Assembly (NCBI GenBank): GCA_018399975.1
Contig: JAGYNU010000003.1
Coordinates: 1-41,977, forward strand
DNA from: Candidatus Omnitrophota bacterium
Lineage (GTDB): Bacteria > Omnitrophota > Gorgyraeia > M55B152
Direction of reading: 5' to 3'
DNA length: 41,977 bases
A model generated the notes under the pieces. The model was not told the origin of the DNA. It did not search any database and saw only the letters and a program-made list of their open reading frames with translations. Numbering within the stretch: the first letter of the stretch is position 1; every line of letters begins with the position of its first letter. Positions 14,826 to 17,035 of the stretch are shown here, piece after piece. Both the position numbers and the translations under genes were made by a program.

Positions 14826-14847
14826 ATAAGGAAGATTGTATATTATA

Positions 14848-15144
14848 ATGGAGAAGGAATATTTTGAATATCAATTAGTTTTTAAAAAAGAGGGGTTGTT
14901 GAAATACATTTCTCATTTAGATTTACTTCGTCTTTTTCAACGGGTAGTTAGAAGAGCTAATTTGCCAGTAGTATTTTCTAAAGGTTTTCATCCTCTGCCT
15001 AAGTTAAAAATACAACCTGCTTTAAAATTAGGAATAGAGAGTGATAATTTAAAATTATTTATCAAGTTAAATAAGAATATATCAAATAGAGAGTTAAAAG
15101 ATAGATTAAATTCAGAATTACCTGATGAAATCAAAGTTTTATGA
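14848..15144 (+). CDS. DUF2344/TIGR03936-like radical SAM-linked protein, apparently C-terminally short
   Basis: YQLVFKKEGLLKYISHLDLLRLFQRVVRRANLPVVFSKGFHPLPKLKIQPALKLGIESD; ends at about 100 aa just before the repeat island. Confidence 0.7.
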   Translation: MEKEYFEYQLVFKKEGLLKYISHLDLLRLFQRVVRRANLPVVFSKGFHPLPKLKIQPALKLGIESDNLKLFIKLNKNISNRELKDRLNSELPDEIKVL

Positions 15145-15198
15145 ATAAATACTGTAGGATAAATTTCGTGTTAAAATTTGACATTGGATATTGGGGGC

Positions 15199-15497
15199 TA
15201 TAAAGGATAAAGGAGAAAGGAAAAAGGATAAAGTTCTACGTTTAAAGTCCTACGTCCTAAGTCCTAAGTTAAAAACAGAGGATAAAAGAACAAGGATAAA
15301 GGATAAAGGAAAAAATAGAAGCCTGAAACCTGATGATTAAAAATTAGGTCAACTTGTCATTTGTAATTTGTAACTTGTAATTTACTTGTATCTTGTATCT
15401 TGTTTCTTGTAATTTGTAATTTGTTTGTAATTTGTTATTTGTTATTTGTAATTTGTAATTTACTTGTATCTTGTATCTTGTCTCTTGTATCTTATTT
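15199..15497. repeat. Heptanucleotide (7-nt periodic) short tandem repeat island with several word families
   Basis: GATAAAG/GAGAAAG/GAAAAAG; TCCTACG/TCCTAAG/TCCTAAG; TAAAGGA x2; TTTGTAA/CTTGTAA/CTTGTAT/TTTGTTA arrays in a mostly constant 7-nt register. Confidence 0.9.
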
Positions 15498-15655
15498 AGG
15501 TTTTGTCTATTCAGACTTCATATTTTATTTATGAAAGTGCAAAATATTCTTGACATTACTTATGAATTTTGATACTTGATATTTTCTTTAGTTCTTGATA
15601 TAGTTATAGCTTATTAATTTATAACGGATGTTTGTAAAAAGAAAGGAGTTGCCCT

Positions 15656-17035
15656 ATGTCTGATGATGTTAAAATTTTTCTTAATGAAGAAGATATTCCT
15701 AAACAGTGGTATAACATAGTGCCAGATTTGCCTAATCAACCACCTCCTCCTCTTGGCCCTGATGGCAAACCTATTAAACCAGAGATGTTGTCTAAAGTTT
15801 TCCCAATGAATTTGATTGAGCAGGAAGTTTCACAAGAACGTTGGATAGATATACCAGAAGAAATACTCGAAATTTTATATCGTTGGAGGCCTACTCCTTT
15901 ACGAAGAGCAAGATATTTAGAAAAATATTTAGATACTCCTGCTCGAATTTATTATAAGGATGAGAGTTTTAGCCCTCCGGGTAGTCATAAACCGAATACT
16001 GCGGTAGCCCAAGCTTGGTATAATAAAGAATTTGGTATAAAAAAGCTCACTACTGAAACTGGGGCAGGGCAATGGGGCAGTGCATTAGCTTTTTCTTGTA
16101 AACTATTAGGCCTTGGATGTAAAGTTTATATGGTTAGAATAAGTTTTGACCAAAAACCTTTAAGAAAGAATATGATGCAAATATGGGATGCTAATTGTAT
16201 TCCTAGTCCCAGTAATGAGACAAAAGTAGGCCGTGAAGTTTTAGAAAAAACTCCTGATACTCCCGGAAGTTTAGGTATAGCTATAGCAGAAGCTATAGAA
16301 GAGGCCATAAGTGATGAATCTGGGGAAACACGTTATTCCCTGGGTAGTGTTTTAAACCATGTATTGCTTCATCAAACAATAATTGGGTTAGAAGCAAAAA
16401 AACAGTTAAAAATAGCAGGGGAAAGTAATCCCGATATTGTTATAGGTTGTTGTGGAGGAGGTAGTAACTTTGCAGGTTTATCTTTTCCTTTTCTTTATGA
16501 TAAAATAAATGGCCAGGAGATGACTATTATACCTACAGAACCGACTGCTTGTCCTACTATGACTCGTGCTCCTTATTCTTATGATTTTGGGGATTCGGCA
16601 GGTCAAACTCCTTTATTGGCAATGTATACATTGGGACATAGTTTTGTTCCTCCTCCTATTCATGCTGGAGGTCTTCGTTATCATGGTATGGCTCCTTTAG
16701 TTAGCCAGGGAATTAAGGATGGGCTTTTGGAACCCCGTTCACTTGACCAGGTGAAATGTTATGAATCTGCTTTACTTTGGGCAAGAACCGAAGGGTATAT
16801 ATGTGCTCCGGAAACTAGTCATGCGATTGCTTGTGTAATTGACGAAGCCAAAAAGGCTAAAGAAGAAGGTAAAGAAAAGGTCATTTTATTTAATTATAGT
16901 GGGCATGGATTAATGGATTTAGCAGGATATGAGAAGTTTTTATCTAATGAATTAGTTGATTTTTCATTACCAGAAGAAGATTTAAAAAAATCCTTAAAAT
17001 CAATTGAGGGATTGCCCAAGCCAAATAATAAATAA
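15656..17035 (+). CDS. trpB2: TrpB-like pyridoxal-phosphate-dependent enzyme (TrpB2 type)
   Basis: [76 protein letters not shown]. Confidence 0.9.

What the first reader, a model, noticed from the sequence alone, without database searches (positions are those of the whole stretch)
15178..15497. Heptad-register repeat island built from several unrelated 7-nt words
Seen: from 15199 the sequence parses in 7-nt blocks: TATAAAG GATAAAG GAGAAAG GAAAAAG GATAAAG | TTCTACG TTTAAAG TCCTACG TCCTAAG TCCTAAG | TTAAAAA CAGAGGA TAAAAGA ACAAGGA TAAAGGA TAAAGGA | ... CTTGTCA TTTGTAA TTTGTAA CTTGTAA, then 4-nt spacers (TTTA/TTTG), then CTTGTAT CTTGTAT CTTGTTT CTTGTAA ... The period stays at 7 while the word changes, which single-motif slippage does not explain. 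Heptanucleotide STRRs are known in cyanobacteria; the switching of word families in register is the unusual part.
Basis: partly seen in the sequence, partly recalled or inferred. Interest (0 to 1): 0.75.

Follow-up and report, generated by a model that had tools for sequence, protein, structure and literature searches.

The report
Mosaic 7-letter DNA satellite islands
The stretch is a genuine patchwork of 7-letter DNA repeats between two genes, one of dozens of such patches in this bacterium's genome; it looks like bacterial "satellite DNA" that grows and shrinks by whole 7-letter units, mutates, and has pieces copied between patches, so it belongs to a known kind of repeat but is unusually abundant and mixed here.

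Summary
Lag-7 identity in 15178-15497 is 0.658, against 0.34-0.35 at lags 6 and 8 and a maximum of 0.39 in 2,000 shuffles. The listed words are there, and the first 16 heptads (15199-15310) run in one register.

The island is one of about 45 intergenic heptad islands in 520 kb of this 1.18-Mb draft genome. Period 7 exceeds every period that is not a multiple of 7 by about five-fold or more. Two findings explain the word switching. (1) Part of the switch here (GGAWAAAG>TTCTACG>TTTAAAG>TCCTACG) recurs, 89-96% identical, at two other loci, and non-heptad modules shared by other islands occur only in or near islands, so islands are mosaics of copied modules. (2) In Shewanella isolates, arrays in corresponding intergenic gaps differ by exactly 7, 28 and 35 bp, and neighbouring heptads share point mutations.

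So slippage in whole-heptad steps, point mutation, local re-amplification and copying between islands suffice in principle. No RNA fold, Rfam family, G4 motif or island-linked reverse transcriptase was found. Heptanucleotide over-representation in bacteria is already published. New are the density, the mosaic make-up and a modest strand bias. Why 7 stays open.

The parts
15199..15233 (+). Heptad block 1: (K/G)ATAAAG-type words (TATAAAG, GATAAAG, GAGAAAG, GAAAAAG, GATAAAG)
   Evidence: Sequence; TRF period 7, 4.9 copies
15234..15268 (+). Heptad block 2: TTCTACG, TTTAAAG, TCCTACG, TCCTAAG x2 (TCCTANG family), same register as block 1
   Evidence: Sequence. The block 1 to block 2 switch 15216-15269 is 96% identical to C18:2168-2221, and 15218-15270 is 89% identical to C25:2301-2249
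15269..15310 (+). Heptad block 3: TTAAAAA, CAGAGGA, TAAAAGA, ACAAGGA, TAAAGGA x2, same register
   Evidence: Sequence. 15257-15294 is 95% identical to C25:2323-2286, where the same pieces stand in permuted order
15311..15352 (.). Weakly periodic spacer, 42 nt (six heptad lengths)
   Evidence: Local lag-7 identity falls to about 0.36 near 15323
15353..15497 (+). Heptad block 4: CTTGTAN/TTTGTAA family with 4-nt TTTA/TTTG spacers
   Evidence: Sequence; TRF. The CTTGTAN x2.5 pattern occurs 24 times in the genome; reversed-pattern control 2
15351..15411 (+). First copy of an internal duplication (offset 78 bp) carrying words and spacer together
   Evidence: BLAST: 15351-15411 against 15429-15489, 61 bp, 91.8% identity; TRF period 78
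15429..15489 (+). Second copy of the internal duplication
14836..15144 (+). Upstream gene: DUF2344 (radical-SAM-linked) protein, 102 aa; the island begins 26-55 bp after its stop
   Evidence: PF10105, E=2e-32. The closest same-class relatives have open frames of about 109 aa, so it is probably not truncated by the island
15656..17035 (+). Downstream gene: PLP-dependent enzyme (TrpB-like), 459 aa
   Evidence: PF00291, E=7.7e-32
15576..15604 (+). Possible promoter of the downstream gene (TTGATA-17-TATAGT), outside the island
   Evidence: Consensus scan, 10 of 12 positions; 3 hits in the region against 4.6 expected by chance, so weak

Best explanation
This is a mosaic heptanucleotide satellite island: non-coding, apparently non-functional repeat DNA filling an intergenic gap. 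Step 1 (shown in Shewanella, inferred here): arrays gain and lose whole 7-bp units, or multiples of them, as replication slippage or unequal recombination would do. Step 2 (shown in Shewanella and within islands): point mutations arise in a unit and are re-amplified into runs of neighbouring units, so the word changes while the register stays. Step 3 (shown here as a pattern, mechanism inferred): composite stretches, with word junctions and non-heptad modules, are copied between islands, probably by recombination, gene conversion or template switching on shared repeats, so unrelated words end up joined. Step 4 (inferred): 7-bp changes are tolerated between genes and selected against inside them because they shift the reading frame. 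Why 7 rather than 5, 8 or 10 is not explained; the published guess is a polymerase-contact length.
For: Period 7 dominates: 66 segments in 438 kb of this genome, against 13 or fewer for any period that is not a multiple of 7, and 4 at period 7 in order-2 Markov sequence. 78% of segments are mostly intergenic although 88% of the sample is coding. The window's switch module recurs at C18 and C25; other islands share further modules, including non-heptad ones; shuffles gave none for the four modules tested. The 78-bp internal duplication copied words and spacer together. Shewanella comparisons at matching intergenic positions: array differences of 35, 28 and 7 bp in conserved flanks, with runs such as TAAGTCC>TAGGTCC>TAGGTTC. 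G307 shows an in-register TCCTAAG>TCATAAG change in an array that starts at the stop codon before purE. Reversed-word arrays are as common or commoner in viral contigs (7 against 32; 28 against 60), so words look arbitrary. No excess RNA folding (z -0.73 and +1.14) and no Rfam match in the island.
Against: No close relative of this genome is held (kinship only at class level), so length changes at this very locus could not be shown. Copying between islands is inferred from shared modules, not observed. The Y-rich words lie mostly on the strand opposite to their flanking genes (14 against 3 independent islands, p=0.013), which neutral slippage alone does not predict; this window is one of the three exceptions. 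The predominance of 7 is left unexplained.
Confidence: 0.72

Rival explanations
1. Mobile composite element: whole islands or hairpin-bounded units insert as discrete elements (MITE- or REP-like), and heptads are their internal filling.
For: Shared non-heptad modules, and REP-like hairpins (GAACCAGAACGAAGTACGGTTC; CCTGTCTGCCGACAGG) embedded in or next to islands; one splits a TCCTA array in C25. In same-class genome G115, heptad words form the arms of inverted repeats about 100-200 bp apart.
Against: No common ends seen: modules appear in permuted order and different lengths between islands. Shewanella arrays differ by whole heptads without added flanks. No transposase was sought systematically.
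Confidence: 0.12
2. Functional regulatory arrays: words are binding sites for a DNA- or RNA-binding protein (as proposed for TAACTGA repeats), or islands act as transcript ends or replication-strand markers.
For: Strand bias relative to genes, 14 against 3. Islands sit closer to the upstream stop (median 43 bp) than to the next start (median 95 bp; p=0.03). In one Shewanella locus the array lies between the stop codon and a hairpin that looks like a terminator.
Against: Words differ within and between islands. Arrays vary from about a dozen units to about two, or are absent, at one locus among Shewanella species. No RNA structure, terminator or Rfam match in the window island. Neighbouring genes seen here have no obvious common theme.
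Confidence: 0.1
3. Templated synthesis by a dedicated enzyme (telomerase-like or reverse-transcriptase-driven heptad addition).
For: A constant 7-nt step with a varying word resembles degenerate telomere repeats; contig ends often lie in islands.
Against: Only one RVT_1 match in the genome, partial, on a chimeric-looking contig with no island link. Islands are internal and mosaic. Contig ends in repeats are the usual result of short-read assembly.
Confidence: 0.03
4. Assembly artefact.
For: The genome is a fragmented draft (109 contigs) and several contigs end in islands.
Against: The island is well inside a 42-kb contig. Similar arrays occur in isolate genomes (Shewanella, Vibrio, Vreelandella), with conserved unique flanks in four Shewanella genomes.
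Confidence: 0.03

Closest known systems
Heptanucleotide simple sequence repeats of bacteria (over-representation reported by Mrazek et al. 2007, cited in PMC4692102 and PMC4679880)
   Same: 7-bp tandem units, intergenic, over-represented; polymerase-related slippage proposed
   Different: Here several word families are joined in one island and composite junctions recur across the genome
GGGNATC / GGGGA(Y)T heterogeneous heptads of Xanthomonas and Nostoc (PMC4692102)
   Same: Dispersed intergenic heptad arrays with degenerate positions, varying in length between relatives
   Different: Those are G-rich and form G-quadruplexes; the window words have no repeated G-tracts
TAACTGA heptad arrays of Beggiatoaceae, cyanobacteria and Bacteroidetes (PMC4679880)
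   Same: Heptad arrays in gaps that are shorter in relatives; in Microcystis often mixed with other heptads
   Different: In the Beggiatoaceae it is one word with almost no one-base variants; here variants and unrelated words dominate
Degenerate heptanucleotide repeats in the P6b helix of the Nostoc tRNA-Leu intron (described in PMC3488679)
   Same: Degenerate heptads, copy-number differences
   Different: There they pair into an RNA hairpin inside an intron; the window island shows no excess folding
Short tandemly repeated repetitive (STRR) sequences of heterocystous cyanobacteria (from memory; PMC4692102 mentions the Calothrix repeats)
   Same: Several heptanucleotide families dispersed in one genome
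   Different: In-register joining of unrelated words within one island was not seen described in what was read
Heptanucleotide-repeat elements of Geobacter metallireducens (PMC2700814)
   Same: 49 dispersed elements of four tandem heptads (GGGACCG / GGACCGG)
   Different: Fixed copy number, interpreted as regulatory RNA elements, also found inside genes

Membership tests
Bacterial heptanucleotide tandem repeats (SSR/STRR) | Tandem 7-bp units well above chance | tested here: met
   Lag 7 = 0.658 against a shuffle maximum of 0.393
Bacterial heptanucleotide tandem repeats (SSR/STRR) | Mostly intergenic, many dispersed loci | tested here: met
   69 segments in 520 kb, 78% mostly intergenic; merged to 45 intergenic islands
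Bacterial heptanucleotide tandem repeats (SSR/STRR) | Copy number varies in unit steps between relatives | tested here: inconclusive
   Met in Shewanella (7, 28, 35 bp); not testable for this genome, no close relative held
Bacterial heptanucleotide tandem repeats (SSR/STRR) | One (possibly degenerate) word per array; usual but not strictly required, since mixed arrays are mentioned for Microcystis (PMC4679880) | tested here: not met
   At least three unrelated word families in this island; hence called a variant of the kind, not a plain member
G-quadruplex heptads (GGGNATC type) | G-tract of 3 or more in each unit | tested here: not met
   No GGG in any heptad of the island on either strand; the one G-run (15194-15198) lies just outside
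REP / MITE elements | Discrete ends and inverted-repeat structure | tested here: not met
   Window island folds no better than shuffles; module order permuted between loci. Separate REP-like hairpins do occur in other islands
Phase-variation (contingency) repeat | Array in a coding region or promoter spacer of a surface gene, length-polymorphic within a population | not testable with these tools
   Neighbours are DUF2344 and a PLP enzyme; the array is not in a reading frame; no population data
Reverse-transcriptase or telomerase-like system | Linked polymerase gene | tested here: not met
   Single partial RVT_1 match on contig C96, not beside an island; the draft is 89% complete

The most novel reading that the evidence does not exclude
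The islands form a self-spreading bacterial satellite family in which an active copying process (in-trans template switching or gene conversion, possibly with a specialised polymerase that favours a 7-nt step) continually transplants composite heptad modules between islands and sets their strand orientation, giving this lineage far more of these islands than its class-level relatives.
Probability: 0.15. Interest if true: 0.75.

Novelty: new variant of a known kind. Interest (0 to 1): 0.42.

Why it matters
Heptanucleotide over-representation in bacteria was noticed in 2007 (as cited in PMC4692102 and PMC4679880), and the papers read here offer no tested mechanism for it. This genome is a concentrated natural example, and the Shewanella isolates make the question testable at the bench: array loci that differ by whole heptads in conserved flanks can be tracked for mutation rate, unit step and effect on transcripts. 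It also shows that "unrelated words in register" can arise from ordinary repeat evolution plus module copying, so such islands need not be read as a new coding or enzymatic system.

Tried and rejected
Structured RNA: no excess folding on either strand, no Rfam family in the island, no terminator. Reverse transcriptase: one partial gene on a chimeric-looking contig, no island link. Interruption of the upstream gene by the island: DUF2344 is of similar length in its closest relatives. Empty-site comparison for this locus: the downstream PLP-enzyme gene was not found beside DUF2344 in the class relatives examined, so none was possible. One universal register for all words: rejected for TCCTA versus YTTGTA (phases 1, 2 and 6), held for YTTGTA versus TTCGTCA in 20 of 23 junctions; the apparent YTTGTA/CTGTYTT phase is an overlap of my own patterns and was discarded. 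A special word shared by horizontal transfer: TCCTANG arrays occur in many phyla, but reversed words are as common or commoner in viral contigs, so word identity carries little signal. Random Shewanella DNA (400 kb) holds no long period-7 segment: islands are sparse there, and the density seen here is not general. Naming the host phylum by matching proteins to named loci was inconclusive. Loss of mismatch repair: a MutS gene is present.

Full report
Observation. Sixteen contiguous heptads run from 15199 to 15310 in one register. After a 42-nt weakly periodic spacer, a second array of CTTGTAN/TTTGTAA words runs from 15353 to about 15497 with 4-nt spacers. Lag-7 identity is 0.658, against 0.344 at lag 6 and 0.346 at lag 8; the highest of 2,000 shuffles was 0.393, and the island holds the best 320-bp stretches of the window. 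Part of the second array is a 78-bp-offset duplication, 15351-15411 against 15429-15489, 92% identical.

Setting. The island fills the gap between a DUF2344 gene (stop at 15144) and a PLP-enzyme gene (start at 15656). A weak promoter-like site lies beyond the island at 15576-15604, but such matches are not above chance in this region. There is no terminator, no Rfam family in the island, and RNA folding is no better than shuffles on either strand.

Genome-wide. The genome is a 1.18-Mb draft in 109 contigs, 30% G+C in the window. CTTGTAN arrays match 24 places in it, with 2 for the reversed control. The TCCTA pattern has 121 matches with 0 for the reversed control, while only two other genomes of 285 drawn from the phylum have any, with 5 and 2. 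In 520 kb of fetched contigs there are 69 period-7 segments of 49 bp or more, 78% mostly intergenic although 88% of the sample is coding; merged, they make 45 intergenic islands. That sample includes a few contigs chosen because they carry islands. Leaving those out (438 kb), period 7 has 66 segments, against at most 13 for any period that is not a multiple of 7, and 4 at period 7 in order-2 Markov sequence. An earlier, stricter count on 232 kb gave 23 against 5 or fewer, after discounting contigs that read all N.

Why the word switches. BLAST shows that 15216-15269, which spans GGAWAAAG, TTCTACG, TTTAAAG and TCCTACG, is 96% identical to C18:2168-2221, that 15218-15270 is 89% identical to C25:2301-2249, and that 15257-15294 is 95% identical to another part of C25. 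In C25 the same pieces stand in permuted order. Other islands share further modules, some of them non-heptad, such as CTCTGATTTTATTTGGTTATTG (6 copies), ATTTGTCATTCTCATGTCCTA (6) and TAGAGCAATTAGAAATTTG (8). All copies of these lie in or near islands. Of these, the first two were also tested in shuffled sequence, as were the switch module and one hairpin, and gave none. Junction phases support copying rather than one ancestral register: YTTGTA against TTCGTCA is fixed in 20 of 23 junctions, but TCCTA against YTTGTA takes about three recurrent phases.

Direct test of the growth step. In Shewanella isolates the arrays can be compared in corresponding intergenic gaps. Between an M13-type peptidase gene and the next gene, S. 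fidelis has about a dozen heptads in runs TAAGTCC, TAGGTCC, TAGGTTC; strain 1CM18E has about two; S. marinintestina has no recognisable array there. At three further positions pairs of species differ by exactly 35, 28 and 7 bp inside conserved flanks, and neighbouring units share point mutations. Word change in register is therefore an ordinary product of whole-heptad gain and loss plus mutation. A small array in same-class genome G307 shows the same: TCCTAAG x4 and then TCATAAG x2, starting at a stop codon.

Words. Those loci also hold arrays of many other heptads. As a control, arrays of the reversed words were counted in viral contigs: 32 against 7 for TCCTANG, 60 against 28 for CTTGTAN. 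The word therefore carries little information, and a special shared element is not supported. These scans do not test period 7 against other periods.

Orientation. Among islands between co-directional genes, the Y-rich words lie opposite to the genes in 14 of 17 independent cases (p=0.013; 20 against 3 if segments are counted). Relative to contig GC skew it is 19 against 8 (p=0.052). This window is one of the exceptions. Replication direction and transcription cannot be separated with these contigs.

Known kinds. PMC4692102 and PMC4679880 report that heptanucleotide repeats are over-represented in bacteria and cite the suggestion that 7 nt is the stretch contacting the polymerase. They describe GGGNATC and TAACTGA arrays, the latter mixed with other heptads in Microcystis. 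PMC3488679 describes degenerate heptads in a Nostoc intron, and PMC2700814 heptad elements in Geobacter. The present island belongs to this kind, in an unusually dense and mosaic form. The Mrazek paper itself was not read.

Limits. No close relative, reads or RNA data are available for this organism, so growth at this locus and module copying are inferred. The host phylum was not identified. The contig-wide ORF calls used to classify islands were simple stop-to-start ORFs, not curated genes. Shewanella comparisons rest on four positions in up to five genomes, and orthology was judged by conserved flanking sequence and gene identity rather than by trees.

Noticed in passing
L266 (G000:C96:215-1018 and 1028-2236): A 2.2-kb contig joins a G+C-rich, reverse-transcriptase-like fragment to an A+T-rich gene; it looks chimeric or contaminated.
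   Followed up: partly
L201-L210 (G000:C3-C12): These contigs appear to read as N throughout (withheld stretches); they had to be discounted from period statistics.
   Followed up: no
C25 about 2300-2430, C24 about 1243, C40 about 11580 of G000: A REP-like hairpin (GAACCAGAACGAAGTACGGTTC) is embedded in or next to heptad islands; in C25 it splits a TCCTA array.
   Followed up: partly
L239-L242 (G115) and L224: In this same-class genome ACAAGNT heptads form the two arms of inverted repeats about 100-200 bp apart, many loci per genome.
   Followed up: partly
L078, L112, L130 and other contigs of Acidobacteria bacterium isolate SJ750: Many TCCTARG arrays alternate with a recurring spacer (GGCAAGAGCTCTTGCC...CCACGA), a second genome extremely rich in heptads.
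   Followed up: no
L087, L093 (Thiohalophilus thiocyanatoxydans): Several CAGAACT and CAGCACT heptad arrays lie within a few kilobases in an isolate genome.
   Followed up: no
L267 about 1497-1545 (G307, before purE): A heptad array begins exactly at the stop codon (TAAGTCC) and ends before the next gene's ribosome-binding site.
   Followed up: no
G000:C66:200-410: TCCTANG units cycle through N = A, C, T, a 21-bp higher-order repeat.
   Followed up: no
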